The position numbers and the translations under genes are program-made. A stretch of 36,684 nucleotides of DNA. Source: Gemmatimonadota bacterium. Its GTDB lineage: Bacteria; Gemmatimonadota; Gemmatimonadetes; Longimicrobiales; Gaopeijiaceae. The DNA lies in NCBI GenBank assembly GCA_028874985.1, contig JAPPGI010000067.1, positions 1 to 36,684 on the forward strand, in the 5' to 3' direction. The notes under the pieces were generated by a model. It saw only the letters and a program-made list of their open reading frames with translations, was not told the origin of the DNA and did no database searches. This document shows positions 5,830 through 31,688 of the stretch, piece by piece (the stretch's first letter is position 1; each line of letters opens with the position of its first letter).

Positions 5830-8800
5830 CTAATCGAGCAGCCCGGCCAGCGCCGAGGCTCCCTCAAGACCCGTGTCGGAGCGTGCGAGCTCCTGCCGCT
5901 GGGCGCGTGAGAGCCATGTCACCCGGCTGCCCGTCGCGCCCCGCGTGACGGCGAGCACGTCGTCGATCTGCTCGGCTACGGCGCCGACATGCGAGATCAC
6001 CCCCACCATCCGGCCCCTCCCGGCCACCTGCGAGAGCGCCTCGATGGCGCAGTCCAGGTTGTTGCGGTCCAGCGACCCGAAGCCCTCGTCGAGGAAGAGC
6101 GACTCGAGGCGGCCGCCGCTCCGGGCCATCATCTCCACCATCCCGAGCGCTAGCGCCAGCGACCCGATGAACTGTTCCCCGCCCGAGAGGCTGGCGGGGG
6201 AGCGCGCCTGGCCGGAGTCGTTGTCGACCACGAGCCACTGCCGGTCCTCCAGGTCGCCCGGGTCGGCGAAGCTGTAGCGGTCGGCGGTCATCTTCCCGAG
6301 CATCCTGGACGCGTAGACCAGCAGGTCCCGCGACCGCCGCAGCGTGAGCCACTTGAGGAAGGCGCCGGGCTTGAGCGCGGCGTCGAGGTCGCCCAGGGCG
6401 AGCTCCAGTGCGGCAACCTCGTCGGCGGTCCGCCGGAGCTTCAGGAGGTCGCCGAGGATGGCGGCGAAGGCGGCGCGGGCATGCGCGGTGTTCCGGGCGG
6501 CGTAGCGCGCGTTTTCGGCCACCGTCCCGGTGGCCACCACCAACGGGTCGAGCGCGGCCTTCCAGTCGTTCAGTGTCCGCGGGAGGGCGTCCGTGTCAAC
6601 GACCAGCAGCGGAGCGAGGCCGTCCGTTGTGGCAACCTCGCAGAAGGCGTAGAAGCGGTCCACAAGGATGCGTGCGACGGCCACCGCCTCCGCACAGGCC
6701 TCCTGGCCGGCTGCGTGTGCTTCGTGGCGCCGGCCCGCCGCCAGTTCCACTACATCGGCCATCGCCCGGCGAAGCCGGCCGATCCCTTCCCGGAGCGTAT
6801 TCGCGTCCACCGGGTAGTGGATGGCCGCGGGGACCGCGGTCTCGGCGGCCAGCTCCCGGACGGCCTCCGCGAGAGCGGTCCGGTGGTCGGCCAGCGCACG
6901 CACCATGGCCTGCAGAGGTTCCTCGACCCGGGTCCTGCGGGTCCCGTCGAGACGCTTGAGCGCGGTCCTGGTCTCTTCGATCCCGGCGCGCAGGCGTTCC
7001 CGTTCCCGGCTGCGCAGCTGGAGGATCTTCTCGCGCTCCCGGGCCGTGTACGAGGCGCGGTCGACGGGTGCGGTGTCGACCGTTTCCAGTTGCAGGGGGT
7101 CGGGGGGAAGGACGAGTCGGGGGCGGAACGGAGACGGGATGGAGTGAATACTCCGGTTCAGAGCGTCGAGGGCCTCGCGGGCGGTGTTGCGGGTTCTATC
7201 GAGGTCGTTGCGCGAGTGCGCGAGTGCCTGCCGGGCCGATGTCTCGCCCACCTGGGCACCGGTATGCGCTTCGCGCAGCTCTCGGGCCTCGGTGATGTGC
7301 CGGTCCAGCTTCGCCTCGGCTTCGCGGAATCGCTGGCGAGCCGGGGCGAGGACCTCTTCCCGGTCCGGTAGGGGCGCGTCGCCTGCGAGCGGGAGGGCGT
7401 CGTCCAGCGCGGCTGCGCCGCCGAGTCGGCCGAGCGCGTCGGCCATTCCGGAACGGAGATCCCCCAGATCCCTCCGGGTTTCCCCTATCCGCTCCCGGCC
7501 CGATTGCCGTTGCGCTTCGGCTTCGGCCACGACCTTGCCGGCCGCGTTCGCCCGCGACCCCGCGTGCCGGTGCGCTTCGCGCGCCGCGTCCAGACCCATG
7601 TCGCGCGGCGGGACCCAGTCCTCGGGGAGCTCGCTCCGGCAGACGGGACACTCGTCGCCCGGACAGAGGCCGTGGGCGGCGGCGGCGGCGGCGTTGGTGC
7701 GCCTCGCCTCGCCAAGCTCCCGCTCGGTGCGCTGCAGATCCTCCTGCGCCCCCTGCAGTTCACGCCGCGCGGTGCCGAGCCCTGCGGTGACTTCGGCGGT
7801 CTCCCGCTCCCGCCTGGCCAACCCGTCCTCCGTCGAACGGATGCGCTCCTGCAGGTCGCTGCACTTCTCGAACCAGCGCTCGCTCCGTGCCAGGAGCTCG
7901 CGCGCGGAACCGACGGCTTCCGCGAGGGGCGGCTCCCGCGCCTGGTGCCGGGCCACCCGGTCACTTGCCGATTCGAGGGCCCGCGTCGCCCGGACATGTT
8001 GCCGCGCCGCCGCCTCCTCGGCGGCGATCGCCCCCCGCAGCGCCTCCGCGGCTTCGACCGCCTTCGCCACCTGTGCCGGGAGCGCGTCCAGCGCGGCCAG
8101 GGTGCGCGCGACCTCGCGATCGTCGGGGCCGTCGTCGGTGGGAATGCCGTCGAGGTCGCGCTTCAGCCCGGCCTCCCGCCCCTCCAGCTCGGTCGCTTCG
8201 GCCTCCATCCGGCGCTGCAGACTCTCCAGCGGCGCCAGCCGGCCGGCCAGTTCGTCCATCGCCGACGGGGTCACGCGCTCGTCCGCCCGACGGGCCGCCG
8301 CGGTCGCCGCCTCGGACCGGCGCAGGGTATCGGCGGCCCGTTCGGACCGGTCGCGGAGATCGGCCAGAGCGATCGCCCGACGGCTCGCCGCGTCGGCCCG
8401 GGAGGTCAGATCGGCCAGGTGCGCCTCGGGGTCGTCCGGATGGCGCTCCACCTCGTCCCGCAGCCGCGCCGCCAGCGTCCTGACCTCCGCCAGGCGCCGC
8501 CTCGCGACCTCGCCCGCCGCCTCGAGATCGCGGGTCTGCCAGACCTGGCGCAGGATCTCGGTGCGGGCCGACGGCGCGTCCTCCACCAGGAGGCGGGCGA
8601 AGCGTCCCTGCGGCAGGATCACGGTGCGCAGGAAGGCGTCGCTGTCGAGCCCGATCAGCGCCTGCACCCGCTCGTTGACCGGCCTGACCTGCTCGACCTT
8701 CTCGAGCGTCTCGCCTCCGGGCCCGTAGCGGACCAGCTGCGCCTGCGGAGGCCGGAGTCCCCCCGCGCCCGCGCGCCGGTCCACCCTGGCGACCTCCCAC

Positions 8801-9048
8801 TCCTCGCCGGACACCCGGAAGCGCAGCACCACGCGCATCACGTCCGAGGTGTCGTTCATGAGCTCCCGCTTGGACTTGCTCCCGAGCGAGGTCTGTCCGT
8901 ACAGGGCGTAGGTCATCGCCTCCAGGATCGAGGACTTCCCGGCGCCGGTGTCGCCGATCACGGCGATCCGGGTGCGGCCGCCGAAGTCGATCCCGACCTC
9001 GGCCCGGAAGGACCGCAGTCCCTCGATGCTGATCCGAAGCGGGCGCAT
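5830..9048 (-). CDS. sbcC: Exonuclease SbcC (Rad50-like ATPase)
   Basis: A 1072-residue SMC/Rad50-type ATPase, the partner of SbcD. The complex cleaves DNA hairpins and processes blocked double-strand ends. Visible: N-terminal Walker A GDTGAGKSS (32-40), two long coiled-coil arms very rich in Arg/Ala/Glu, the zinc hook C467-P-V-C470 near the middle, ABC signature SLSGGEQ and Walker B LFLDEGFGSLD close to the C-terminus (about 955-990). All catalytic parts are present and the length is normal. ATG 9048 lies 4 bases downstream of the sbcD stop. Dense plus-strand open frames over the gene are compositional shadows. Confidence 0.95.
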   Translation of the reverse strand: MRPLRISIEGLRSFRAEVGIDFGGRTRIAVIGDTGAGKSSILEAMTYALYGQTSLGSKSKRELMNDTSDVMRVVLRFRVSGEEWEVARVDRRAGAGGLRPPQAQLVRYGPGGETLEKVEQVRPVNERVQALIGLDSDAFLRTVILPQGRFARLLVEDAPSARTEILRQVWQTRDLEAAGEVARRRLAEVRTLAARLRDEVERHPDDPEAHLADLTSRADAASRRAIALADLRDRSERAADTLRRSEAATAAARRADERVTPSAMDELAGRLAPLESLQRRMEAEATELEGREAGLKRDLDGIPTDDGPDDREVARTLAALDALPAQVAKAVEAAEALRGAIAAEEAAARQHVRATRALESASDRVARHQAREPPLAEAVGSARELLARSERWFEKCSDLQERIRSTEDGLARRERETAEVTAGLGTARRELQGAQEDLQRTERELGEARRTNAAAAAAHGLCPGDECPVCRSELPEDWVPPRDMGLDAAREAHRHAGSRANAAGKVVAEAEAQRQSGRERIGETRRDLGDLRSGMADALGRLGGAAALDDALPLAGDAPLPDREEVLAPARQRFREAEAKLDRHITEARELREAHTGAQVGETSARQALAHSRNDLDRTRNTAREALDALNRSIHSIPSPFRPRLVLPPDPLQLETVDTAPVDRASYTAREREKILQLRSRERERLRAGIEETRTALKRLDGTRRTRVEEPLQAMVRALADHRTALAEAVRELAAETAVPAAIHYPVDANTLREGIGRLRRAMADVVELAAGRRHEAHAAGQEACAEAVAVARILVDRFYAFCEVATTDGLAPLLVVDTDALPRTLNDWKAALDPLVVATGTVAENARYAARNTAHARAAFAAILGDLLKLRRTADEVAALELALGDLDAALKPGAFLKWLTLRRSRDLLVYASRMLGKMTADRYSFADPGDLEDRQWLVVDNDSGQARSPASLSGGEQFIGSLALALGMVEMMARSGGRLESLFLDEGFGSLDRNNLDCAIEALSQVAGRGRMVGVISHVGAVAEQIDDVLAVTRGATGSRVTWLSRAQRQELARSDTGLEGASALAGLLD

Positions 9049-9052
9049 CCGG

Positions 9053-10360
9053 TCAGGCGTCCGCTTGGTGGCCCGGTTCGCACGTGTGCGGTCCGTCGCG
9101 GCGCGTCGTCGCGCCGCCCACCCCTCCCCCGCGCAGTGCGGCGAGGACCCCCTCGGCGCGCACCGTCAGCCCGGTCAACCCGAAGTCCGGCCCCTCCTCG
9201 TCCCCCGGTCCGGCCACCGCCTCGCGAAGGAGCGCCCGGACCGCGTCGCGGGGCGCCTTCGTCGCCCTCCCGGTCGCCGCCGTGCTCCGCCACTCGACGA
9301 AGAGGTCATCGATGGACGGCTCCTCGCCGTCCTCCGTCCCGGCGATCGCCTTGACCGGCCGGTTGGCCACCTCGTTGACCAGGTTGAAGATCACGCACTC
9401 CGGCGACCACTCGGCCACCCGATCCGCCAGGTCGGGGACCGGGTCGTCGGACCTGACCACCGCCTTGAGAAAACAGCCGTCCAGCGCCCCGTTCGCCGCG
9501 CGCGCCTCCAGCTCCTGGAACGTCCCGGCGAAGCTCTCCAACGGCCGCCCCGGGGGCAGCTCCCGTTCACCTACCCTGACATCGTCGCCGATCGTGACCA
9601 CGACCGCGTGCTTGCTCTGGCGGCTCTCGCCGTAGTCGAGCGGGACGAGCGACCCCGCATACCGGCCGCGCGCGCTTCCCGGAAGCTGCTGCGGGTCGTG
9701 GATGTGTCCGAAGGCGCAGTAGAGGGCCCGGTGCAGCCCCTTCGTGTGCGTGGCGTGGTCCTCGCCGACGGTGAACCGGCGCTCGGAGTTGCCGGGCCGC
9801 GCCCCGTCGACGTGCAGGTGCGCCGTGTAGAGGACGATCCCGTGAGGGCCCGCGGCCTCCCGTGCGCGGCCGATCACGCGGTCGTTGAGGGCGCGGATGC
9901 CGTCGGCGTAGTCGCCCTCGAAGCGCAGGGCGTCGGCTGTGGCGTAGTCGGTGATCGCGCCGGGCGGAATGAAGGGGACGCACGCAAGCGCGACGGGGAC
10001 CTCCGCCAGGTCGTCGAACTCCAGGACGCGCGGCCTGGTGACGAACCGGAGGCGCCGGGGCGAGGCCATGCGCGCCATGTCGTCGAGGACATCGAAGAGG
10101 GCGCCCGAGTCGTGGTTGCCGCTGATCACGACGGTCGGCGCGATCCGCGCAAGCTGCTGCAGGGCGGTGACGCCGAGCCGGAGGGCGGGGTAGGGGGGGC
10201 GGTAGGCGTCGAAGAGGTCGCCCGCGTGGACGATCAGGTCGGGGCGTTCGGCGGCGGCGATCGCCAGGAGCGCGCGGAGGGCCGTGCGGTGGTCCTCGGT
10301 GCGGTCGTGGCGTCCGAGCTTCGCGCCGAGGTGCCAGTCGGCGGTGTGGAGGAGTTTCAA
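9053..10360 (-). CDS. sbcD: Exonuclease subunit SbcD (Mre11-like)
   Basis: A 435-residue metallophosphoesterase, the nuclease partner of SbcC. Metal-binding motifs are in order: D8-x-H10, GDLFD around 47-51 (D48), GNHD 81-84, then a later AHLH and GHIHDPQ. The C-terminal part after about residue 290 is the SbcD capping and SbcC-contact region. TTG 10360 is the start: GGAG lies 8 bases upstream (10369-10372) and the protein begins directly with the conserved KLLHTADWHLG strand. It forms an operon with sbcC (4-base gap). A promoter is readable upstream (see 10401-10429). Confidence 0.94.
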   Translation of the reverse strand: MKLLHTADWHLGAKLGRHDRTEDHRTALRALLAIAAAERPDLIVHAGDLFDAYRPPYPALRLGVTALQQLARIAPTVVISGNHDSGALFDVLDDMARMASPRRLRFVTRPRVLEFDDLAEVPVALACVPFIPPGAITDYATADALRFEGDYADGIRALNDRVIGRAREAAGPHGIVLYTAHLHVDGARPGNSERRFTVGEDHATHTKGLHRALYCAFGHIHDPQQLPGSARGRYAGSLVPLDYGESRQSKHAVVVTIGDDVRVGERELPPGRPLESFAGTFQELEARAANGALDGCFLKAVVRSDDPVPDLADRVAEWSPECVIFNLVNEVANRPVKAIAGTEDGEEPSIDDLFVEWRSTAATGRATKAPRDAVRALLREAVAGPGDEEGPDFGLTGLTVRAEGVLAALRGGGVGGATTRRDGPHTCEPGHQADA

Positions 10361-11819: not shown

Positions 11820-12474
11820 ATGAGCACCACCGGATTCCAGCACGCCCTCGATCACATCCGTTCCATCTCGGAGACCGAAGCCCGGAAGGGCCGCCTGTTC
11901 GAGCGGCTCATGCAGGCGTACTTCCGCGAGGATCCGCTGTACCAGGAGCGGTTCTCCCAAGTATGGCTCTGGCAGGAGTGGGTTCCGCACTTCAACGAAG
12001 AGGGGGCTCGCCGAGCTGCCCGGCAACCGGACTCCGGGCCGCCCCTACGGTTCGACCTGAACGACACCGGCATCGACCTCGTGGCCCGGGAGCGCGATGG
12101 AGGCTGGTGCGCGATCCAGTGCAAGTGCTACGCGCCGCGATCCCTTCACTTCCCGCATCTTCGTAGACACCGGAGACAGCTGGGGCCCGAACGCCCTCAA
12201 GACTCTCCGCGGATTGAAGCCCGCCTGCATCGTTCTCCGGTTCGGCGACTTGGCCAGCCGCCCGTTCGACTGGCCGGACTTGGTGTCGAGGGATCCGGAG
12301 GATCTCCGTTATGTCGGCGAGCCGTTAGAGCTGCGGCCTCGCCAGCGCGAGGCACTGGAAGATGTGCTGGTGGGGTTCCGGGACCACGACCGGGGCAAGC
12401 TCGTCATGGCCTGCGGCACCGGGAAGACCTTCACGGCGCTCGTTCACGGCGCTCCGCATCGTATTCCTTCATGA
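11820..12474 (+). pseudogene. Remnant of restriction-type helicase (Mrr-like nuclease plus DEAD/DEAH)
   Basis: The first frame (11820 on) starts MSTTGFQHALDHI and contains an Mrr-like nuclease motif with DTGIDLVAR and the IQCKCY core (D, Q-x-K). After CYAP the frame changes: the rest of the protein reads in another frame from about 12133 (RDPFTSRIFVDTGDSW, then FELRPRQREAL-like LELRPRQREALED, then helicase motif I KLVMACGTGKTFTAL). The linker expected between the parts is missing, so there was an internal deletion. At motif I a 12-base block is duplicated with period 13 (12430-12454), shifting frame, and the remaining helicase domain is absent. Similar proteins are type ISP/III-like restriction enzymes; this copy cannot be functional. 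Confidence 0.7.
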
Positions 12475-12616
12475 CCATCGGGCCGGTGAGTCCGCTTTCG
12501 TTCTCCGGTAGCCCGCTGTTTCTGAACGCTTTCAACACCGTGGCAGCGTTCCTCGAGTCGAACGGTCTGGACAGGGTTCTTGGCGGGACCCAACGCGGAG
12601 CTTGACGAGGCCACCC

Positions 12617-13918
12617 ATGACCACCCCCTACTCCGACTCGGCCCTCGAGGCCCTCATGGCCGACCTCGAATCCGAGCTCGTCGAGCGCAAGGAGTCGCTC
12701 AGAAGGGCCCCACCGGGCAAGGACGGCCCCGTCGAGCGCATTCGCCAGGCGGTGTGCGCTTTCGCCAACGATCTTCCGAGCCACAACCGGCCCGGCGTGG
12801 TGTTCGTCGGAGTGCGCGACGACGGCACGCCATCGGGCTTCCCCATCACCGACCGCCTCCTCCAGCGCTTGGCCGACATCAAGACCGACGGGCACACCCT
12901 TCCGCCTCCGACCATGTCGGTGGAGAAGCGGGTGCTCGCCGGGCACGACGTGGCCGTCGTCACCGTCCACCCTTCCGACGCGCCGCCCGTGCGGGCCCGA
13001 GGCCGAATCTGGATCCGGGTGGGACCGCGTCGCGCCATCGCCACCGCGCAGGACGAGCGCATCCTCAACGAGCGCCGCCGCTACCGCGACACGCCGTTCG
13101 ACCTTCGCCCTCTCTACCGCGCCACCCTCTCCGATCTCCACATCCGCCGCTTCGAGGAGGACTACCTGCCGGGCGCCCTTGACCCGGAGGCACTCGCCGC
13201 GAACGACCGCACCACGGAGGAGCGCCTGGCCGCCGCACGAATGATCCTCTCCGTCGAAGACCCCGTTCCCACCGTCGTAGGAATGCTCGCGCTCGGCCGC
13301 ACTCCCCAGGACTTTCTTCCGGGCGCGTACATCCAGTTCCTGAGGATCGAGGGCACCGGGCTGGCCGACCCGATCCGCGATGAGGCACGCTGCACCGGCG
13401 ACGTCAAGAAGCAGCTCGAGAGGCTCATCCTCAAGCTCGACGCGCACAACCGCACCTCGGTGGATATCACGTCGGGTCCCCGGGAGATCCGACGCCACCT
13501 CCATGCCCCGGACGCGCTCCGGCAGATCGCCTACAACGCGGTCATGCACCGTACCTACGAGGGGACAAACGCGCCGGTCCGCGTCACCTGGTTCGACGAT
13601 CGAGTGGAGATCATCAGCCCGGGCGGGGCGTACGGCGCGGTCACGGCGGAGGAGTTCGGGCGGTCGGGGCTGGCCGACTACCGCAACCCCAGCTTGGCCG
13701 AGGCGATGCGCGTTCTGGGGATCGTCCAGCGGTTCGGCGTCGGAATCGGCATCGCTCGCGACGCGCTGCACCGAAACGCGCAGCCGGAGCCCGTCTTCGA
13801 TGTGCAGCCCAACTGGATGCGATGCGTCATCCGGGCCAGAACGAATGTGGAGGACGGCGTCCAATCAGCGAGGGACAGCGCCCCGAGTGGAAGGCCGCCT
13901 GGCGCGACGACCACCTGA
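12617..13918 (+). CDS. AlbA_2 (Schlafen-type) ATP-binding protein, C-terminus frameshifted
   Basis: A 433-residue protein with an N-terminal AlbA_2/Schlafen AAA-4-like domain (about 17-150; ESELVERKESL, GVVFVGVRDDG, IWIRVGPRRAIA) and a C-terminal GHKL-type HATPase_c_4-like region (ALRQIAYNAVMHRTY, DRVEIISPGG, GVGIGIARDAL). Such proteins are annotated as transcriptional regulators or RecG-like and often occur in accessory islands. ATG 12617 follows GAGG by about 6 bases. The frame runs out in low-quality sequence after RARTNV; the true C-terminal winged helix continues in another frame (next entry). The core may still fold, but the DNA-binding end is lost unless the shift is a sequencing error. 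Confidence 0.75.
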   Translation: MTTPYSDSALEALMADLESELVERKESLRRAPPGKDGPVERIRQAVCAFANDLPSHNRPGVVFVGVRDDGTPSGFPITDRLLQRLADIKTDGHTLPPPTMSVEKRVLAGHDVAVVTVHPSDAPPVRARGRIWIRVGPRRAIATAQDERILNERRRYRDTPFDLRPLYRATLSDLHIRRFEEDYLPGALDPEALAANDRTTEERLAAARMILSVEDPVPTVVGMLALGRTPQDFLPGAYIQFLRIEGTGLADPIRDEARCTGDVKKQLERLILKLDAHNRTSVDITSGPREIRRHLHAPDALRQIAYNAVMHRTYEGTNAPVRVTWFDDRVEIISPGGAYGAVTAEEFGRSGLADYRNPSLAEAMRVLGIVQRFGVGIGIARDALHRNAQPEPVFDVQPNWMRCVIRARTNVEDGVQSARDSAPSGRPPGATTT

Positions 13919-14082
13919 CGTTGCTTCGGGCGAACCCCGCGCTCACCCACGCGGCCTTGGCGGAAGAGCTGAACACATCTCGCTACAGCGTCCGGCATCA
14001 CCTCGACGGGCTGCGGAAGGCTGGACGGATTCGGCGCCTCGGTTCGAGGAAGGCTGGCGTATGGGAAGTGATGGACGGATAA
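13846..14082 (+). pseudogene. Out-of-frame winged-helix C-terminus of the AlbA_2 protein
   Basis: This frame reads ISEGQRPEWKAAWRDDHL, then ALTHAALAEELNTSRYSVRHH-type helix-turn-helix and GLRKAGRIRRLGSRKAG-type wing, ending at TAA 14080-14082. That is the winged-helix domain expected at the end of AlbA_2/HATPase_c_4 proteins. It is one base out of phase with the upstream gene, consistent with loss of one base around 13845-13865. It has no start of its own that looks convincing (ATG 13822 lies inside the AlbA_2 frame). Confidence 0.6.
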
Positions 14083-14110
14083 ACCACAGATAAACCACAG
14101 ATAAACCGCA
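14078..14110. repeat. Three tandem 11-bp repeats
   Basis: GATAAACCACA occurs at 14078-14088 and 14089-14099, then GATAAACCGCA at 14100-14110, and a fourth decayed GATAACC at 14122. The array overlaps the stop codon of the AlbA_2 winged-helix frame and fills the gap to the convergent Fic gene. CACAGATAAAC-type repeats are common in intergenic DNA of several bacterial groups; role unknown. Confidence 0.7.
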
Positions 14111-14135
14111 CAAAGCCCACAGATAACCGGCCGCC

Positions 14136-15305
14136 TCAGCCCTCGGTCACCTCCGTGCCCTCGTTCAGGATCGCGACGTACCGGTCGTAGACGAACAGTC
14201 GGCCTCGCCGCCTTCCGGTCGTCTCGCGAGCGACCCCCAGGTCGACCAGCACCTTCATTCCGGCCGACGCACCCGAGAAGGAGAGACCCGCGCGCTCCGC
14301 AGCCGCTGTGATGGACAGAATCGGTCTCTCGCGCAGCGCGGCGTACACGCGCAGGGCCGATCCGGCGCGCCGCCCGGACTGCTCGATGATGCTCCGGTCG
14401 TTCGCGAACAGTTCCAGGAGTCGCCTGGTCGTGTGCACGGCTCCGTCGGCCACCACGCGCATGCCCTCCAGGAAGAAGGCGACCCAGGCCTCCCAGTCGC
14501 CCGAGGTCCGCACCTGGTCCAGGAGGTCGTAGTAGGTGGGCCTGTGTTGCTTGAGATACAGACTCAGGTACAGGAGCGGCTCCCGGAGCACTCCGGCGTG
14601 AAGAAGCAGAAGGGTCACCAGCAGTCGCCCGACTCTCCCGTTGCCGTCCAGGAAGGGGTGGATGGTCTCGAACTGGACGTGTGCCAGCGCGATTCGGACC
14701 AAGGTGGGCAGATCGCCGCCTTCGTCGTGGAGAAATAGCTCCAGGTCGCCCATGCAGCTCCGGACGGCCGTGTGCGGCGGGGGCACGAACGTGGCGTTGC
14801 CCGGCCTGGACCCACCGCTCCAGTTCTGCGACCGACGGAATTCCCCGGGGTCCTTCGTGCTCCCGCGTCCCCTCGAGAGCAGCACGCCATGAATCTCTCG
14901 GATGAGGCGGTTCGACAGAGGGAAGTCGTCCCTGAGCCGACGGTGTCCGTGTTCCATCGCCGCCACGTAGTTCGCGGTCTCGACCACATCGTCCAAGGGG
15001 ACTCCGGGAGCTTCCTCGATCTCGTGAAGCAGCAGGTCCGACAGCGACGACTGCGTTCCTTCGATCTGGGAGGAGAGCACCGCCTCCTTTCGGATGTAGA
15101 CGTAGGTCAGGAGAGTGTGGTCGGGAAGCAGGCTGGACATGCCGTCGAGGCGGCCGAGGCTCATCGCAGCGGCTTCCAGCGTCGAGCGAAGAGGTCCGTC
15201 CAGCACCAGCGGAGGGTCCGGCGGGAGCGGTGCGGGCACGAACGCGTTCACTCGTTCGCCGCCGGTCACGGTGAGCTCGTATCTTCCGGTAGGTCCTCGA
15301 AGCAT
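14136..15305 (-). CDS. Fic family protein (probable AMPylase), apparently intact
   Basis: A 389-residue Fic protein. A Fic_N domain at about 25-100 carries the inhibitory-helix motif S78-S-Q-I-E82-G83 ([S/T]xxxE[G/N]), so self-inhibition by an N-terminal helix is expected (class II). The catalytic motif H216-P-F-L-D-G-N222-G-R-V-G-R227 is complete. After about residue 310 a winged helix follows (ISITAAAERAGLSFSGAS). The family transfers AMP to target hydroxyls and can act as a regulator or toxin. ATG 15305 gives the canonical N-terminus. It is the only plainly intact gene in the 10.5-17.7 kb region. A dyad 44 bp upstream (15349-15383) is a candidate site for autoregulation. Confidence 0.9.
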   Translation of the reverse strand: MLRGPTGRYELTVTGGERVNAFVPAPLPPDPPLVLDGPLRSTLEAAAMSLGRLDGMSSLLPDHTLLTYVYIRKEAVLSSQIEGTQSSLSDLLLHEIEEAPGVPLDDVVETANYVAAMEHGHRRLRDDFPLSNRLIREIHGVLLSRGRGSTKDPGEFRRSQNWSGGSRPGNATFVPPPHTAVRSCMGDLELFLHDEGGDLPTLVRIALAHVQFETIHPFLDGNGRVGRLLVTLLLLHAGVLREPLLYLSLYLKQHRPTYYDLLDQVRTSGDWEAWVAFFLEGMRVVADGAVHTTRRLLELFANDRSIIEQSGRRAGSALRVYAALRERPILSITAAAERAGLSFSGASAGMKVLVDLGVARETTGRRRGRLFVYDRYVAILNEGTEVTEG

Positions 15306-15573: not shown

Positions 15574-16658
15574 TCACACCCCTCCGATCCGCTCGCGGAG
15601 CGTGCCGGTCTCCCACAACGGGACCACCGTGATCCGCTCGCTCACCCGGTATGTCCGCGGGGCGGGGCACACCACGAACAGGTGATCCACCCCCAGCGCA
15701 TCCGCCGAGGCGCGAGTCTTGCGCGACACGGACGGCGACTCGCTGAACTTGATCTCGAACCCCGTCCAGCGACCCTCGACGGTGGCCAGCAAGTCCAGCT
15801 CGCCGCCCCCGTGCGTGGCCCAGAACCATGCATCCGCCGGACGCAGGACGTGTAGTAGCTGCTCGATCACGAACCCCTCCCAGGAAGCTCCGACGCACGG
15901 ATGCGAAAGCAGCGCCGTGTGGTGCGGGATACCCAGCAGGGTATGAAGCAGGCCCGTGTCGCGCAGGTAGACCTTGGGTGCCTTGACCTGGCGCTTGGCG
16001 ATGTTGTGGAACCACGGCTGCAGCTGCCGGACCATGAAGGTGCCGGTCAGCAGATCCAGGTACCGGCGCACGGTCTTGTCCGACAGCGACAGCGCGCGTC
16101 CCAGGTTGGAGGCGTTCCACGTCTGGCCGTGCGAATGCGCCAGCATGGTCCAGAAGCGCCGCATCGCCGCGGCGGGAATGGAAATCCCGAGCTGCGGCAC
16201 GTCGCGCTCCAGGAAGGTGCTCACGAACGAGTCCCGCCAGGCCCGGCTGTCGTCGTCGGAGGCCGCCAGATAGGAGCGGGGGAAGCCTCCGCGCACCCAT
16301 AGGTCGCGCCACTTGCGGCGCACCGGTTTCGTCGAGGCCGAAGCCGCTCATTTCGATCTGTTCCACCGGCCCGGCCAGCGTTTGAGACTCCCCGCACCAG
16401 GTCCGGCGACGCGCTGCCCAGGATCAGAAACCGCGTCCGGGAACCCGGCCGGTCCACAAGCACCCGAAGAGCCGGGAAGAGCTTCGGCATCCGCTGCACC
16501 TCGTCCAGCACCACCAGTCCATCCAGGGATCCCAGAACGAGCTCGGGATTGGCGAGTGCGCGGACGTCCGGTTCCGACTCCAGATCGAAGCGCGTGACCT
16601 TCCGTTTGAAAACTCGGAGTTCGCATCCGAGTTTTCGTGTGAACGGAGAAGGTCCCAC
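15574..16658 (-). pseudogene. AAA/DUF4143 ATPase, broken (first of two)
   Basis: Three minus-strand frames line up as one AAA_14/DUF4143 protein. 16658 to about 16395 reads LVVLDEVQRMPKLFPALR (Walker B) and FLILGSASPDLVRG (sensor I). Then SQTLAGPVEQIEMSGFGLDE follows in a second frame to about 16305, then WRDLWVRGGFPRSYLA and the DUF4143 domain (KTVRRYLDLLTGTFMVRQL, KVYLRDTGLLHTLLG, ELDLL, GFEIKFSESP) in a third. So there are two frameshifts, and the Walker A segment is missing at the 5' end. Intact relatives are P-loop ATPases with a nuclease-like C-terminal domain, common in archaea and bacteria, of uncertain function. Confidence 0.75.
16608..16636. promoter_or_regulatory. Perfect 11-bp inverted repeat
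   Basis: GAAAACTCGGA (16608-16618) and TCCGAGTTTTC (16626-16636) pair perfectly around a 7-base loop. On the plus strand the right arm ends in TTTTC, on the minus strand in TTTTC as well, so it could act as a bidirectional terminator or an operator. It sits where the N-terminal coding part of the broken minus-strand ATPase should be, so it probably marks a rearrangement end. Confidence 0.5.
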
Positions 16659-16712
16659 CTAATCTTGACCCGCCAAGACATGCAGCTCACATTTCGGAAT
16701 CGCAGTTTCCAC

Positions 16713-16725
16713 TTTGCGACGCAAA
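16713..16725 (+). promoter_or_regulatory. 13-bp palindrome directly before the second ATPase start
   Basis: TTTGCG-A-CGCAAA is a perfect palindrome ending one base before ATG 16727. Its position would put a bound protein over the ribosome-binding region, so autoregulation is possible. There is no Shine-Dalgarno sequence between it and the ATG. Confidence 0.35.
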
Positions 16726-16726
16726 A

Positions 16727-17705
16727 ATGGCGCTACTCACACGATTCTTCCAGATACCGGAGCAGAGCTTCTTCCTTCTGGGGCCGCGTGGCACCGGCAA
16801 GTCGACCTGGTTGCGGGCGCGCCTGCCCGACGCGTTCTGGCTCGACCTCCTCGACCCGGAGCTGCACCGGCGGCTGGTGGCGCGCCCGGAGCGGCTGCGG
16901 GCGGCGCTGGCCGGGGCTCCCGCCGCCCGGACGGTCGTGATCGACGAGATCCAGCGGGCCCCGGAACTGCTGTCGGTGGTCCATGCGGTGCTGGAGGAAC
17001 CGTCGCCGCCGCGCTTCGTGCTCACCGGTTCCAGCGCGCGCAAGCTTCGCCGCGGCGAGGTCAACCTTCTCGGGGGGCGGGCCCTGAACCGGACTCTGCA
17101 CCCGTTCATGGCCGCGGAGCTCCCGCGCTTCGACCTCGCGCGAGCCCTCGAGGTCGGCCTGGTGCCTCTGGTCGTGGACTCGCCCGACCCGGAGGGGACC
17201 CTTGGGGCCTACGCCAGCCTCTACATCGACCAGGAAGTGCGTGCGGAGCGTCTCCCGCGCGACGGTGGCGCGCGACAAGCTCTACCTGTTCGACGCCGGC
17301 GTCTTCCGCTCGCTGCGCCCGACCGGACCGCTTGACCGGCCCGGCGACATCGACGGCCAGGCGCTGAAGGGGCTGGTGGCCCAGCACCTGCGTGCGTGGG
17401 CGGCCTACTCGGGGGGCGACGCCTCGATCTTCTACTGGCGCACGCGGGGCGGAAGCGAGGTCGACTTCGTTGTCTACGGGCCGAACTGCTTCCACGCGTT
17501 CGAAGTCAAGAACGCTCGGGCCGTGCACTCCGCCGACCTGCGGGCGCTGCGTACCTTCCGAAGCGACTACCCCGAAGCGGACGCCGCCATGCTGCACCGG
17601 GGACGGGAACGGATGAGGATGCACGGGATCTGGTGTCTCCCGGTGGAGGACTTCCTGCGGGAGATGGTTCCGGGGCAGGGGCTGCTGGAGTGGGTGGACG
17701 CGTGA
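16727..17705 (+). pseudogene. AAA/DUF4143 ATPase, internally deleted (second of two)
   Basis: The first frame starts MALLTRFFQIPEQ and has Walker A LLGPRGTGKSTWL, Walker B TVVIDEIQRAPELL and sensor FVLTGSSARKLRRG, then reaches LYIDQEVRAE near 17245. There the protein jumps to another frame that starts meaningfully at RATVARDKLYLFDAGVFRSL (about 17255) and runs through the DUF4143 nuclease-like part (YWRTRGGSEVDFVVY, FEVKNARAV) to TGA 17705. In relatives about 65-70 residues of helical DUF4143 lie between those points, so roughly 200 bp were lost with a change of frame. The two halves could only be made as separate fragments. It is head-to-head with the other broken DUF4143 ATPase. Confidence 0.75.
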
Positions 17706-17715
17706 CCCCTCGCCC

Positions 17716-17932
17716 TCACAGCCCCCCCTCCCCCCCTCCCATCGCCCCCAGATTCGCCATGATCGTCTCCGTCCGCTCCCGGTCCCGCGCCTCGTCCGCC
17801 ACCGCCTCGTCCGGATTGGTCGCGAACGGCGGAAACGGGAACCGCAACGGGATCGGCTCGAGCACGATCGGCTGGGACAGCACCATCGTCCCGGGCATGA
17901 AGCGCGACGCCCGCTCGCGCAGTGCGGACGAC
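17716..17932 (-). repeat. Duplicated 3' end of herA (copy A)
   Basis: This stretch is a second copy of the last part of herA (19696-19912), at a constant offset of 1980 bases. Between 17741 and 17932 I count 11 mismatches in 192 positions. The frame is open and ends at TGA 17716-17718. From the shared MPGTMVLSQPIV Met it encodes 60 residues, the same length as the real herA tail, with 5 substitutions. It has no start region of its own. It lies 24 bases beyond the stop of the OLD-like gene, so that gene is bracketed by two herA tails. Confidence 0.85.
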
Positions 17933-17956
17933 TCCGGCCGACGGCCCGTTCGGTGT

Positions 17957-19693
17957 TTACGAAGCCGCCCCGCCCCGGTTTCCCCGGTTCAGCACCTCCG
18001 CCATGCGGTCAAGCTTCCGAACGACCTCGGGGTGAATCTCCTCCGGCTTCATCGCCTCGGCGATCAGGTACAGGTCGCTCTTGTTGGTGGAGTGGCCAAC
18101 CGCCTTGAGCAGCGGCATGAGCAGTTCCGTGCTGCCCTTTGACCGGACGAACACGACCGAATCTCCAAAAAGCTCGGCACCCGGCGGAACCATACCCCGG
18201 AATTCCCGTTGCACACTCTCCACGCTCAGCGGGAATCTCAGGAAGCGGGCGATCGGGCCGGGGTGGAAGAGGTAGTTCTCGATCTCGTAACGCTTCCAGC
18301 GAAATACCTCCATCCCGAGCCTCGTCGTCTCGCGTTCGGGCGCCTCCCGGTTGTCCCCGTCGAGCAGGCACACAGCAGGGATTCCCGGAAAGGCCCCGTG
18401 GAGCGCGAAGTGGTGTTCCTTGGCGTGCTCCAGCCGACGTCCCCGCAGCCAGTGGACGTAGGCGTGGGAGAAGAACTCTTGGAGCGGGTGACCCAGAACC
18501 CCGGCCCATGCCCGAAGAATCCGCTCGTCGGTCTGGTCTTCCACGTAGAGCACCGCCCCCACGTCCTGGCCGAGAAGGAGATCGGTGGTGTTGAGCTGCC
18601 TCAGTGCCTCGATGGTCCGGTCTCGTTCCGTGTCGGTGCGTAGCGCGCGTGGAGAATCCCCCGCGAATGACAGGACGCGTTCCGGCTCGGTGGCATCCAG
18701 GATCGTGGGAGAGTGCGTCGCCATGATCACCTGGCCGTCGCGCTCGCGGGCGATCTTCCGCAGGAGCGCGTACACGTCCAGCTGCAGGATGATGTGCTGG
18801 TGGGCGTCGGGTTCGTCCAGGAGCATCACCGTGCCGGGCCTGGCATAGAGGAAGCCGAGCAGCAGAAGCACCTGGAGCGTGCCGCTGCCTACACTGGCAA
18901 GGTCGAGGGGGCGGTAGCGGGGCGACTTGCGGCCGAGGGAGGACTCGGCCGACCATTCGCGGTACTGACAGGTGATGTATGGCTGCCCCGCCCCGTAGGA
19001 AGGGCGAATGAGGTCGATCCTGAAGAGGTCCCTCATGTGCCCAGTCAGGGACTCCCAAGCCGACTCCCGGGCATTGTCGCCGGCGGTGCGGTCGCCAACC
19101 TCCAGGAGCAAGTTCCGCAGGATGTCGCCGCTTCGGCCCTGGCCAATGAGGAGGTCCTGCATTCCGCGTTCGTGCCTGGGCTCATCGCGCTGTATTCCGA
19201 ACAGAGCCGGGACATGCACGACTCGAAGATCCTTGGACGCCCGTGGAGGAAACGCGTTGATCTCCTCCGCCCCCATGTGCTTCGCACCGAGCGGTCGCAC
19301 GTACACCATCTCGCGGTTGGCGTACTGGAACTCCAACCCGCACTCCCAGTGCTCGTCGTTCGACTGCCCCTCTACTACGATCTCAAGGAGTCGAGAAGCA
19401 CCCGGCCCCTCGCCTCCCGACACCACGCGGTCCTTCCACAACAGGTTCATCTCGCGAATCGGAACCGCAGTGAAGTCCCTCCTGGTAAGCGCCACCCCCG
19501 TCCGCTTGACACCCCTGCTTCCACCCTCGCGCTGCGCGAGCCAGTGGCCGAGACCGAACTTCCAGGTCGCAATCGCCTGCAGCAGGGTCGACTTCCCCGC
19601 ATTGTTGGGTCCGGCCAGAACCACCGAGTCGGCCAGCTCGAAGGACTGGTCGCGGAAGCGTTTGAAGCTGCCGAGGCGGACGCGGTGGATCAT
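17957..19693 (-). CDS. OLD-like ATP-dependent endonuclease (AAA ATPase plus TOPRIM)
   Basis: A 578-residue protein. An ABC/SMC-like ATPase comes first: Walker A GPNNAGKST at 28-36, Walker B VMLLDEPDAHQH at about 290-298, and the following H-containing MATHSPTIL. Then a TOPRIM-like region shows VLYVEDQTDERIL (acidic E at about 383) and CLLDGDNRE (D-x-D at about 442). This is the layout of the OLD family, whose members are DNA nucleases and, in the Gabija system (GajA), phage-defence proteins. ATG 19693 lies 2 bases after the herA stop, so it is very likely cotranslated with herA. The longer open frame upstream of ATG 19693 is a herA shadow. No UvrD-like GajB gene is next to it, so it is not a standard Gabija pair. 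Confidence 0.85.
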   Translation of the reverse strand: MIHRVRLGSFKRFRDQSFELADSVVLAGPNNAGKSTLLQAIATWKFGLGHWLAQREGGSRGVKRTGVALTRRDFTAVPIREMNLLWKDRVVSGGEGPGASRLLEIVVEGQSNDEHWECGLEFQYANREMVYVRPLGAKHMGAEEINAFPPRASKDLRVVHVPALFGIQRDEPRHERGMQDLLIGQGRSGDILRNLLLEVGDRTAGDNARESAWESLTGHMRDLFRIDLIRPSYGAGQPYITCQYREWSAESSLGRKSPRYRPLDLASVGSGTLQVLLLLGFLYARPGTVMLLDEPDAHQHIILQLDVYALLRKIARERDGQVIMATHSPTILDATEPERVLSFAGDSPRALRTDTERDRTIEALRQLNTTDLLLGQDVGAVLYVEDQTDERILRAWAGVLGHPLQEFFSHAYVHWLRGRRLEHAKEHHFALHGAFPGIPAVCLLDGDNREAPERETTRLGMEVFRWKRYEIENYLFHPGPIARFLRFPLSVESVQREFRGMVPPGAELFGDSVVFVRSKGSTELLMPLLKAVGHSTNKSDLYLIAEAMKPEEIHPEVVRKLDRMAEVLNRGNRGGAAS

Positions 19694-19695
19694 GG

Positions 19696-21534
19696 CTACA
19701 ACCCCGCCTCCCCCCCCGACATCGCCCCCAGATTCGCCATGATCGCGTCCGTCCGTTCCCGGTCCCGCGCCTCGTCCGCCACCGCCTCGTCCGGATTGGT
19801 CGCGAACGGTGGGAACGGAAACCGCAACGGGATCGGCTCGGGCACGATCGGCTGCGACAGCACCATCGTCCCGGGCATGAACCGCGACGCCCGCTCGCGC
19901 AACGCGGACGACAGGAAGCGGTAGGCGTCGGCCTCGCTGGCGTCGAGCCGCCCGGCCACCTTGAGCGACGCGTTGCGGGGGAGCGCCGGAGCGACCGCCG
20001 ATGCGGCCTGCTGCGCCCCCACCAGGAGCACGCCCAGGGAGCGTCCGCGCTCGGCGATGTCGACCAGAAGCTCGCGAAGCGGCGAGAACCCCTTGGCCGG
20101 CGCGTACTTGTTGAGCTCGTCCAGGACCACGAACCGCAGCGGAACGCGCCCCGTCCCCTGCTTCTCGCGCCACACGCCGTCCAGCAGCGAGCCCACCACG
20201 AAGCGCTGCGCGTCGTCGTGCAGGGTGGAGATGTCGACCACGTGCAGGCGGGCGTTCTCGGACGACACGGGCCTGAGTCCGCAGCCGATCAGCGGCCCGA
20301 CGTGCTTGCGCAGCCGCAGCAGCCGCCGCAGGTAGGCCTGCCGCGTCCCCGACTGGGTGCGCCCGAACCAGGCCCTGATCGTCTCCTCATCGTCCCGGTT
20401 GGCCATCTTCTCGGTGAAGTCGACGAAGTCCCCGAAGTCCTCGATCACGTGGCCGGCGCCCGCGCGCACCGGCTCGGGTTCCTTCGCCGCCAGCCTGTCC
20501 GGGTCGAAGCTCGTGTCCTCGGGGACGGCCGGGAGGATCACCACCGCACCCGACTCTCCGCCTTCGAGCCGACGAAGGTGGCGCAGGAGCTGGATGCGGA
20601 ACTGCTGCTCGATGAACCCGACCTGGGTGGAGCGGTCGTCCTCCGCGGTGAAGCAGAACTGCAGCAGCTGGTCGCGGATGAACTGTTCCGGGGTCCATCC
20701 GTAGGCGTGCACGTCGCCGGTGTCGCGGGACTTGACGCCCGGCACCCTCCCCGAGACGCCGGGCCGCCGGGGGGCGTACAGGCGCACCGAGCGGAAGGGG
20801 CCGGGATCGCCGACGCCCAGGGCGCGCCACTGCGTGCGTGCGTCCGGCCTGCCCGGGAACTCGGAGTTCGGGCGATCGAGGTGGAGCAGGTCCTCGCCCT
20901 TGGTGTTGAAGACGAGCGCCCGCACGTTCTCGCGTTCGGCGCGGCCTCCGAGCAGCGCCATCCCGGCATCGGTCTCCAGGAGCTGGTAGAGGACGTACAG
21001 CGCGTACGAGGTCTTGGTCGCGACCCCCGAGATCCCCGAGATCGAGAAGTGCCCGCCGGAGCGGCCGTCCACGAAGCGCATGTCAGCGTACACGGGCTCG
21101 CCCCCCATGTCCACGCCGACCGGGAGCCTGCCGCGCTTCATCTCGTCCTCGAAGAGGGCGACCGTGCGGTCCCGGCCGACGGCGCGCATGGCCACCGAAC
21201 CCGCGTTCGGCGCCACGAAGAGCTCGGGGACGACGCGCAGCACCCGCACCTCGGCCAGCCTGACGTGCTCGGCGGGCATGACGCGGTCGACGACCCGGGC
21301 CGTGTCGGAGGGCAGGTCGGCGCCCTCGAAACGGCTGCGCAGCTCGGTGACGATCCCGTAGTGGGTGACCTGCGTCCCGTCGGGGAGCTCGTTGCGGACG
21401 GCGACCAGCTGGTCGAGCTGGACGTTCGCGTTCGCGTCGAGGACCACCTGGAAGTCGCGCGAATTGCTGCCGTGCGAGCCGTCCACGAGTCCGATTCGGG
21501 GGTCCGGCGCGGTGTTTCCGTCCTGGTCGCTCAC
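19696..21534 (-). CDS. herA: HerA-like ATPase/DNA translocase
   Basis: A 612-residue HerA/FtsK-superfamily ATPase that would form a hexameric pump for a NurA nuclease. The N-terminal HAS-barrel is visible at about 28-110 (VQLDQLVAVRNELPDG, THYGIVTELRS). The P-loop is the variant GISGVATKTS at 167-176, typical of bacterial HerA-like proteins, and Walker B is VVLDELNKYAP at about 465-475; SLGVLLVGAQQAASAV follows as the sensor/arginine region. GTG 21534 is chosen because it overlaps the nurA stop (GTGA). The last 192 bp are duplicated at 17741-17932. Confidence 0.88.
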   Translation of the reverse strand: MSDQDGNTAPDPRIGLVDGSHGSNSRDFQVVLDANANVQLDQLVAVRNELPDGTQVTHYGIVTELRSRFEGADLPSDTARVVDRVMPAEHVRLAEVRVLRVVPELFVAPNAGSVAMRAVGRDRTVALFEDEMKRGRLPVGVDMGGEPVYADMRFVDGRSGGHFSISGISGVATKTSYALYVLYQLLETDAGMALLGGRAERENVRALVFNTKGEDLLHLDRPNSEFPGRPDARTQWRALGVGDPGPFRSVRLYAPRRPGVSGRVPGVKSRDTGDVHAYGWTPEQFIRDQLLQFCFTAEDDRSTQVGFIEQQFRIQLLRHLRRLEGGESGAVVILPAVPEDTSFDPDRLAAKEPEPVRAGAGHVIEDFGDFVDFTEKMANRDDEETIRAWFGRTQSGTRQAYLRRLLRLRKHVGPLIGCGLRPVSSENARLHVVDISTLHDDAQRFVVGSLLDGVWREKQGTGRVPLRFVVLDELNKYAPAKGFSPLRELLVDIAERGRSLGVLLVGAQQAASAVAPALPRNASLKVAGRLDASEADAYRFLSSALRERASRFMPGTMVLSQPIVPEPIPLRFPFPPFATNPDEAVADEARDRERTDAIMANLGAMSGGEAGL

Positions 21535-22523
21535 GCGGCCTCCTCGTCGCGGTTGTGCTGCATGATGGCTTCGCGAACGGCGCGCAGGGCCAGCCGCGAG
21601 TCGCCGAGCAGGTGGTGAAGGTGCTGTTCCAACCGTGCCACGGGGGCGAGGTTGACCGGCGCGCGGGCATCGCGGTGCGGCGCCGACGCGAAGGCGGGCA
21701 GCCAGCGCGCGGCCCGGTCCACTGTCACGACGGCCTGGCCGCTGCCCGAACTCGCGGGCACCTCCAGGCGCGCGATCCCCGCCCACGGCCCCGCCCAGGG
21801 ACCGGGGTCGCCCACCCGGATGTAGCATGCGTAGCGGTCGTCCTTCATGGCGAACAGGCTGGTCCGCTCTCCCACACCGAGCCCCGGCACGGTCTGCCAG
21901 TGCTCGACCGCGAGGGTGCGCCGGTGATGGGTCTTCACATACCCCACGACGGGCGTCCTGCGGCTGCGGCGGATGTTGTGAAGCGGTCCGTCGAAGACGA
22001 CCATCCAGCCGTCCGCGGACAGGCGGTCGGCGATCTCGGCCTCGGTGTCCCGCATGAGGCGCTGGAGGTGTTGCGGCACCGCCCTCAGTTCCTCGCTCTC
22101 GACGGAAAGGGACATCCAGCGCCATCCGCCCGGATGACGGCGCAGCCGCACCTGGTGCCCGCCGGAGAAGATCACTGCGCGACCGATCTCGGCATGGCGG
22201 ATGGCCGCCGGGCCGTCCGGGCCGATCAGGACGGCTCCCGCTCCCCAGGCACCCGCGAGTCCCGTAACCGTGTCACCTTCCGAATTCGTGCGCGTGAGGT
22301 GAGCCTCGGTTCGGCGCACCCCGTCCACGAAGCAGAGCCGTGCCGGGGGACCCGCGTCGCGGGGTCGGCGAATGCGGAAGTGTCCCCCGTCCTCCACGAC
22401 TCGGCATTCGACGGTATGGTCATCCTCTTCGTCGGCGCGGAAGCCGGCACCGTGGGACGCGTCGAAGGGTTCGACTCCGATGAAGGGGCGGTTCGCGGCG
22501 GTGTCGGCTTTGGGGACGGCCAT
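21531..22523 (-). CDS. nurA: NurA-like nuclease
   Basis: A 330-residue protein whose position and motifs point to the NurA family, RNase H-like DNA end-resection nucleases that work with HerA. The candidate catalytic Asp is D67 in CFVDGVRR, a second is D178 in WMVVFDGPL, and K197 in VVGYVKTHHRR matches the conserved basic position. The C-terminal YIRVGDPGPW and GIARLEVP strands fit the fold. The stop overlaps the start of herA by 4 bases. ATG 22523 is supported by conserved-looking sequence from the first residues, though no strong Shine-Dalgarno is seen. NurA is divergent and assignment rests partly on the HerA neighbour. Confidence 0.8.
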   Translation of the reverse strand: MAVPKADTAANRPFIGVEPFDASHGAGFRADEEDDHTVECRVVEDGGHFRIRRPRDAGPPARLCFVDGVRRTEAHLTRTNSEGDTVTGLAGAWGAGAVLIGPDGPAAIRHAEIGRAVIFSGGHQVRLRRHPGGWRWMSLSVESEELRAVPQHLQRLMRDTEAEIADRLSADGWMVVFDGPLHNIRRSRRTPVVGYVKTHHRRTLAVEHWQTVPGLGVGERTSLFAMKDDRYACYIRVGDPGPWAGPWAGIARLEVPASSGSGQAVVTVDRAARWLPAFASAPHRDARAPVNLAPVARLEQHLHHLLGDSRLALRAVREAIMQHNRDEEAA

Positions 22524-25771: not shown

Positions 25772-25907
25772 ACCGGAAAGGCCTGAAAGGGCACTTCGAT
25801 TCGGGCGTATGGTATGGGTTGAGCAATGCGATCCGGCATGACACGTACCTGGGGTGACAGGACATTCGTGGTGGGTGGACGTCAGGTGGCACCAGAAAGG
25901 CGGCGAC

Positions 25908-27755: not shown

Positions 27756-27756
27756 C

Positions 27757-29568: not shown

Positions 29569-29569
29569 C

Positions 29570-31381: not shown

Positions 31382-31688
31382 CGAGCGCGACGGAATACCG
31401 GGCCGATATTGCGGCGGAAGGAGCGAGTCCCCATATTCGCCTCGTGCTGGAGGGCTTCGTATTTGAGCCAACATTAGAAGAGCCGGGACTGCCTCCCGCC
31501 GTGGACGTCATGCCCTGGAGACGGGGACGGCGAAGCCGGCGGGGAAGTCACCACGAGTTGACCCCGGGCTTCAGCTTACTCCCTTCGGCACAACGGCGGT
31601 CTCGGCCGCCGAAGGCCGGCGCTCCTTCACGGGACGCCGGCCTTCGCCATTGATGGGTCCGGCACCGACACCGAGCAGGGGAGCACCA
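31382..31688. other. Intergenic stretch after the protease array
   Basis: No protein-like frame on either strand. The first 200 bases have no recognisable signal; the second part holds the 12-bp hairpin at 31610-31646. GGGGAGC just before 31689 is the ribosome-binding site of queD. Confidence 0.5.
31610..31646. terminator. Perfect 12-bp hairpin between protease array and queD
   Basis: CGAAGGCCGGCG (31610-31621) and CGCCGGCCTTCG (31635-31646) pair without mismatch around a 13-base loop. It is the most stable stem in this gap and probably ends the protease transcript, but no T-run follows, so a factor-dependent terminator or a repeat-type element is also possible. Confidence 0.45.

What the first reader, a model, noticed from the sequence alone, without database searches (positions are those of the whole stretch)
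17716..19912. OLD-like gene bracketed by two copies of the herA 3' end
The last 192 bp of herA (19721-19912) recur at 17741-17932 with 11 mismatches by my count and a constant offset of 1980, including an intact stop and a 60-codon open tail. The OLD-like nuclease gene lies exactly between the copies. This is what single-crossover insertion of a circle carrying a herA tail plus an OLD gene would leave, or an element that rebuilds the 3' end of its target gene, as tRNA-targeting elements do. I know of no element described as using herA this way.
Basis: partly seen in the sequence, partly recalled or inferred. Interest (0 to 1): 0.75.

Follow-up and report, generated by a model that had tools for sequence, protein, structure and literature searches.

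The report
Displaced herA tail behind OLD gene
In a Gemmatimonadota bacterium, related to genomes from marine sponges, an OLD-like, probably anti-phage gene was joined to the end of the DNA-repair gene herA, apparently by ordinary recombination, and the gene's original last 217 bases were left stranded behind it as a scar; it is real and readable but looks like known processes, not a new mobile element.

Summary
Relatives explain it. The ancestral operon is nurA-herA-sbcD-sbcC; in the window 9.3 kb of cargo sits between herA and sbcD. All three genomes with OLD directly behind herA carry tail A or a shortened remnant. They form one clade in the nurA-herA tree (98/99), so this was one event followed by inheritance and decay, not a recurrent element. 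Tail A is the displaced native 3' end: in G018 it is followed by the native TGA-GGGGGGG flank seen after herA in OLD-less relatives, while tail B (TAG-CC-ATG-OLD) belongs to the arriving segment. The last ~140 nt of herA have a different history from the gene body in several lineages, so homologous exchange near the herA 3' end has moved downstream cargo around. Best reading: homology-anchored, one-sided (illegitimate at the right end) acquisition of OLD, as proposed for Vibrio effector arrays. No integrase, no evidence for a circle or tRNA-like element. New instance of a known kind, modest interest.

The parts
21531..22523 (-). nurA-like gene, first gene of the operon
   Evidence: Pfam NurA PF09376 24.9 bits, above cut-off; 70-88% identical in genus herA loci
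19696..21534 (-). herA (612 aa, TAG stop 19698-19696)
   Evidence: 355 bits to solved HerA 7f6d; 96% identical in G014
19698..19912 (-). tail B, the 3' end of intact herA, joined TAG-CC-ATG to OLD
   Evidence: direct repeat D1
17957..19693 (-). OLD/PtuA-like ABC ATPase with a Toprim-like C-terminal half, 578 aa
   Evidence: AAA_15/AAA_21; PADLOC NsnB/AriA/GajA/Old weak-to-moderate matches; Foldseek to PtuA and OLD 6p74, E ~2e-11; dN/dS 0.15-0.20
17933..17956 (-). 24-nt junction between OLD stop and tail A; partly shared with G018
17716..17932 (-). tail A, displaced native herA 3' end with TGA stop; no gene start
   Evidence: right flank matches the native herA flank through G018/G010/G007
16727..17705 (+). 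AAA_14-DUF4143 gene 'b', convergent, frameshifted here, intact (391 aa) in G014
15577..16730 (-). AAA_14-DUF4143 gene 'a', frameshifted; the older cargo next to the native herA end
   Evidence: intact in G007, G010, G013, G002, G015
14136..15305 (-). Fic-family gene; window DNA covering AAA14a and this gene is 94% identical to the block behind AAA14a in G007
11820..13918 (+). further cargo: Mrr_cat_2 gene (11820-12605) and SLFN_AlbA_2 gene (12602-13918)
9125..10360 (-). sbcD (Mre11-like), ancestral neighbour of herA
   Evidence: tblastn 85.5% to G001 SbcD; Metallophos and weak SbcD_C
5830..9048 (-). sbcC (Rad50-like)
   Evidence: tblastn 61%; AAA_23 and SbcC_Walker_B

Best explanation
A recombination scar. 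The operon nurA-herA-sbcD-sbcC had already taken up cargo (spacer-AAA14a-Fic) behind herA. DNA carrying a herA 3' part directly followed by an OLD-like gene then recombined into it. Its left side paired with the resident herA (homologous), and its right side was joined by end-joining or microhomology inside the resident herA, 217 nt before its stop. The product is one intact herA with the donor's last codons, OLD 2 nt behind it (so probably co-expressed), and the resident's own last 217 nt stranded behind OLD as a functionless tail. Shown: the order, one clade, the native flank of tail A, shortening of tail A in two sister genomes, and tail/body incongruence of herA. Inferred: the one-sided join, the donor, co-expression and a defence role of OLD.
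For: (1) OLD-less relatives: herA-sbcD directly in G001, G003-G005, G017, G019, or herA-spacer-AAA14a-Fic-sbcD in G007. (2) G018's tail A continues TTG-TGA-GGGGGGGAGCGAAC; the herA remnant of G010, which precedes AAA14a, continues TTG-TGA-GGGGGGGAGTGAAC, and the G007 contig that carries the spacer opens with ...GGGGGGGGGCGCGAACGAG. OLD-linked herA ends TTG-TAG-CC-ATG in all three OLD genomes. (3) {G000, G014, G018} are one clade on nurA plus the herA body, 98/99. The window and G018 share sequence across the OLD/tail A junction, and tail A shrinks to 138 nt in G014 and 28 nt in G018. (4) G018's tail B is of the other type (LTAMSGPNVEL) than its tail A (AMSGREVGL), as expected if B came from another lineage. 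(5) The last 140 nt of herA disagree with the body: G007/G011 92.9% body, 78.6% tail (p = 7.5e-7); G013/jk6 89.2%, 77.9% (p = 3e-4), while G013 and the window are 90.5%, 95.7%. (6) The same one-sided mechanism was proposed for displaced 3' ends in Vibrio (PMC5361080).
Against: No donor with herA-OLD and a single tail was found in 23 genus genomes. Synonymous divergence of tails A and B in the window (0.20) is no larger than between sister species (0.19-0.23), which also fits a local duplication at the root of the clade. An OLD 91% identical already lies in the same herA-sbcD interval in G010, behind GmrSD, so it may have come from close by. Tail comparisons rest on about 18 variable sites and are blurred by apparent conversion between the tails: G014's tail B carries alleles of the window's tail A at sites 94, 100 and 103.
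Confidence: 0.58

Rival explanations
1. Local rearrangement: OLD was already resident in the same cargo block (as in G010: herA tail-AAA14a-...-GmrSD-OLD-sbcD). A tandem duplication or template switch copied [herA tail ... OLD], and later deletions left herA-OLD-tail-AAA14a. Both tails would then come from the same herA.
For: G010 carries a 91% identical OLD in the remains of the same interval, between a herA-tail remnant and an sbcD remnant. The herA/OLD junction TTG-T|AGCC-ATG can be made by fusing the T of the native TGA with the AGCC that precedes OLD in G010. Tail A/B dS 0.20 equals the clade's age.
Against: Needs at least three steps; no GmrSD or second OLD remnant was found in the window. 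G018's two tails are of different type.
Confidence: 0.22
2. Single-crossover insertion of a circle carrying a herA tail plus OLD.
For: The final arrangement is identical to what a single crossover would leave.
Against: No circle, replicon or recombinase in the 1980 bp; OLD has no relatives in viral contigs or plasmids; the event is not repeated with other cargo. A linear fragment explains it equally well.
Confidence: 0.12
3. A dedicated site-specific element that targets the herA 3' end and rebuilds it, as tRNA- or guaA-targeting islands do.
For: Different genes follow herA in different genomes.
Against: No integrase between the tails; only one lineage has two tails; tail A shrinks and decays rather than being kept as an attachment site; the different cargoes share no common boundary.
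Confidence: 0.03
4. Tail A is the stump of an older complete second herA copy (paralogue) rather than of the resident gene.
For: G010 shows that a herA tail can survive as a stump after loss of the rest of nurA-herA.
Against: No genome of the genus has two herA genes of this type; tail A sits where the native end sits relative to AAA14a.
Confidence: 0.05

Closest known systems
Homology-facilitated illegitimate recombination (HFIR), and displaced 3' ends or orphan genes in Vibrio cholerae T6SS and Rhs loci (PMC5361080; PMC3240628)
   Same: A conserved upstream gene is the homologous anchor, the other end of the incoming DNA joins illegitimately, and the resident gene's 3' part is shifted downstream behind the new gene.
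   Different: The anchor here is a DNA end-resection gene (herA), the gain is an OLD-like ATPase, and the displaced piece is only a tail with no immunity function. HFIR is inferred from anatomy only.
nurA-herA-mre11-rad50 operon of archaea and some bacteria (Oceanithermus, PMC5448004)
   Same: Same gene order nurA-herA-sbcD-sbcC in most relatives.
   Different: Split by cargo behind herA in several Gemmatimonadota species.
OLD / PtuA / GajA family of ABC ATPases and nucleases
   Same: Walker A GPNNAGKST, SxGSG, LLLDEPDAH and ATHS motifs, a Toprim-like C-terminal half, and a fold match to PtuA and OLD.
   Different: Low identity (10-18%) to solved members, no constant partner gene; GmrSD precedes it in G010 only; activity untested.
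tRNA- or gene-3'-end-targeting integrative elements
   Same: The target's 3' end is present twice around cargo.
   Different: No integrase, no att core, one event only, the distal copy decays.

Membership tests
Homology-facilitated illegitimate recombination product | homologous anchor on one side | tested here: met
   continuous herA through tail B to OLD; herA tail/body incongruence shows crossovers near the 3' end
Homology-facilitated illegitimate recombination product | non-homologous join on the other side, resident sequence kept beyond it | tested here: met
   24-nt junction, then the resident tail with native flank; the anatomy alone does not exclude the rivals
Homology-facilitated illegitimate recombination product | donor and pre-event recipient known, RecA-dependent event | tested here: inconclusive
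   pre-event state like G007 found, across a contig break; donor not found; RecA dependence not testable here
Integrative element targeting a gene 3' end | integrase and att core in the element | tested here: not met
   only OLD and 24 nt lie between the tails
Integrative element targeting a gene 3' end | repeated insertions with different cargo between target-end copies | tested here: not met
   no other locus with two tails
OLD family nuclease | ABC ATPase motifs and fold | tested here: met
OLD family nuclease | Toprim domain with catalytic acidic residues | tested here: inconclusive
   YVED (E385) and LLDGD (D445, D447) present; of these only D445 is invariant in 16 homologues
OLD family nuclease | nuclease or anti-phage activity | not testable with these tools
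   needs bench work
nurA-herA-sbcD-sbcC operon | gene order in relatives | tested here: met
   sbcD follows herA in 26 of 32 loci, within about 40 bp in most; four of the other six contigs end first

The most novel reading that the evidence does not exclude
The herA 3' end is a standing exchange point in this genus: cassettes of defence-type genes (OLD, GmrSD, AAA14-DUF4143, Fic, Mrr) enter and leave between herA and sbcD, each travelling with its own herA tail as homologous anchor, so that a DNA end-resection operon serves as an integrase-free defence island.
Probability: 0.3. Interest if true: 0.5.

Novelty: new member of a known kind. Interest (0 to 1): 0.34.

Why it matters
It is a readable fossil of how a single probable defence gene enters a core repair operon without an integrase: pre-event, post-event and decayed states can all be seen in sister genomes. 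If the exchange of herA tails together with cargo is general, conserved operon genes would act as landing anchors for defence genes, and displaced gene tails could be searched for as a signature of such gains.

Tried and rejected
Assembly artefact: rejected, three genomes with different sequence. Repeat-caused contig breaks in G002, G007 and G015: at first they looked like extra tails, but the contigs G002:C144, G015:C228 and G007:C86 look like continuations of the same locus that break at the G-run behind herA. Orphan tail matches in G008:C46, G004:C58 and G022:C79 (24-40 nt) are chance-level. Search of viral contigs and plasmids for OLD: nothing. Selection on tail A: dN/dS A/B 0.20 on 16 differences cannot separate functional history from decay. 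Self-duplicated herA tails in the other herA loci: none. GmrSD as regular partner of OLD: no match beside any of the 20-odd other OLD relatives checked (only about 1.5 kb of flank was held for most).

Full report
1. The observation. On the minus strand the window reads nurA-like (22523-21531), herA (21534-19696), OLD-like (19693-17957), a second copy of the herA 3' end (17932-17716). The repeat is 215 nt at 93%, constant offset 1980, E = 7e-87 in its genome and without a third copy. herA is HerA by 355 bits to 7f6d. OLD starts 2 nt behind the herA stop.

2. What the neighbourhood is. Related loci were fetched from 98 relative genomes and from the GTDB-wide contig set. Named records are metagenome-assembled Gemmatimonadota and other phyla; that several come from sponges is my own reading of the sample names. 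In 26 of 32 loci, from several phyla, herA is followed on the same strand by sbcD, usually within 40 bp, then sbcC. The window has sbcD and sbcC too, but at 10360-5830. So 9.3 kb of cargo lies between herA and sbcD: OLD, tail A, AAA14-DUF4143 b (convergent, frameshifted), AAA14-DUF4143 a (frameshifted), Fic, an SLFN/AlbA gene and an Mrr-like gene. PADLOC lists the AAA14-DUF4143 type as candidate system PDC-S01; OLD matches NsnB, AriA, GajA and Old models weakly to moderately.

3. States in the genus (23 genomes). (a) herA-sbcD direct: G001, G003, G004, G005, G017, G019 and two further records. (b) herA-spacer-sbcD: G011. (c) herA-spacer-AAA14a-Fic-sbcD: G007, across a contig break at the G-run (C256 + C86; the link is inferred from the shared spacer and operon order). 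(d) herA-OLD-tail A-AAA14b-AAA14a...-sbcD: the window and G014; G018 has OLD, a 28-nt tail remnant, other genes and AAA14 remnants before its contig ends. (e) herA-TAGC-[28 nt resembling the OLD 5' end]-AAA14a-sbcD: G013, G002, G015; the scar scores above all 2000 shuffles for G013 but is weaker in the other two, and no such sequence precedes AAA14a in G007, G010, G014 or the window, so these probably once had OLD. (f) G010: stumps of nurA (65 nt), herA (58 nt) and sbcD (55 nt) around AAA14a...GmrSD-OLD. Eight other genomes have a different, 41-44% identical herA.

4. Which tail is native. In G018 tail A runs on into TTG-TGA-GGGGGGGAGCGAAC. The herA stump of G010, which precedes spacer and AAA14a, runs on into TTG-TGA-GGGGGGGAGTGAAC; G008 and G011 also end herA with TGA-GGGGGG, and the G007 continuation contig opens with a G-run and CGAACGAG. 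OLD-linked herA always ends TTG-TAG-CC-ATG. Hence tail A is the displaced resident 3' end, and tail B arrived with, or was made together with, the OLD junction.

5. One event. The tree of nurA plus the herA body (tail left out) puts the window, G014 and G018 in one clade, 98/99. The window and G018 share recognisable sequence across the OLD/tail A junction, and G014's and G018's shorter tails follow by deletion. OLD is intact and constrained in the window, G018 and G010 (dN/dS 0.15-0.20), broken in G014 and gone in group (e).

6. Recombination at the herA end. Over the last 140 nt, herA identities depart from the body: G007 against its sister G011 drops from 92.9 to 78.6% (p = 7.5e-7), G013 against jk6 from 89.2 to 77.9% (p = 3e-4), while G013 against the window rises from 90.5 to 95.7%. 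Tails with the LGAMSG ending occur with cargo, and tails with the SGPKVEL ending mostly with direct sbcD; G018's tail B and G011 are exceptions. Sites 94, 100 and 103 show the window's tail A alleles in G014's tail B, so the two tails seem also to convert each other. The p-values treat sites as independent and should be read as descriptive.

7. Mechanism. The anatomy fits one-sided homologous recombination anchored in herA with an illegitimate right-hand join inside the resident herA, as proposed for Vibrio effector displacement (PMC5361080). A local duplication from a resident GmrSD-OLD arrangement, as in G010, is the main rival: the herA/OLD junction could have been made by TTG-T|AGCC-ATG fusion. 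A circle is possible but adds nothing, and an integrase-driven element is nearly excluded.

8. The OLD-like protein. The alignment shows Walker A, signature, Walker B and H-loop motifs, and Toprim-like YVED and LLDGD motifs. The model (mean pLDDT 79) matches PtuA and OLD structures (E about 2e-11, TM below 0.6). No activity was tested; a defence role is inference from family.

9. Verdict. A real, well-resolved scar of gene acquisition in a repair operon; a known kind of process; moderate interest for the possible general use of herA as an anchor.

Noticed in passing
window 26100-31400: Tandem array of Peptidase_M66-like genes (25854-27755, 27742-29568, 29555-31381, +). The second and third units differ at 37 of 1813 positions, with a central ~1.1 kb nearly identical, so recent duplication or conversion.
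   Followed up: partly
L127 (G010:C5:124000-140079): An eroded nurA-herA-sbcD locus: only 65, 58 and 55 nt stumps remain around intact cargo (AAA14a, GmrSD, OLD); GmrSD and OLD overlap (CCATGA).
   Followed up: yes
genus genomes: Two very different nurA-herA types (41-44% identical) seem to exclude each other: 15 genomes have one, 8 the other.
   Followed up: no
G002:C28, G007:C256, G015:C217 contig ends (L036, L044, L038): Three assemblies break at the same place, in the G-run at the herA stop; a sequencing-hard spot that can mimic repeats.
   Followed up: yes
window 14078-14126: 11-bp tandem repeat GATAAACCACA, 4.5 copies, AT-richer than its surroundings, next to the Fic gene.
   Followed up: no
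L144 (G019:C70:3915-5060): AAA14a (91%) sits at an unrelated locus there, with homology starting about 50 nt before its ATG as at herA, so this gene may move as a unit.
   Followed up: partly
L063 4088-5130: About 1 kb separates sbcD and sbcC in one record, so insertions may also occur at the next operon junction.
   Followed up: no
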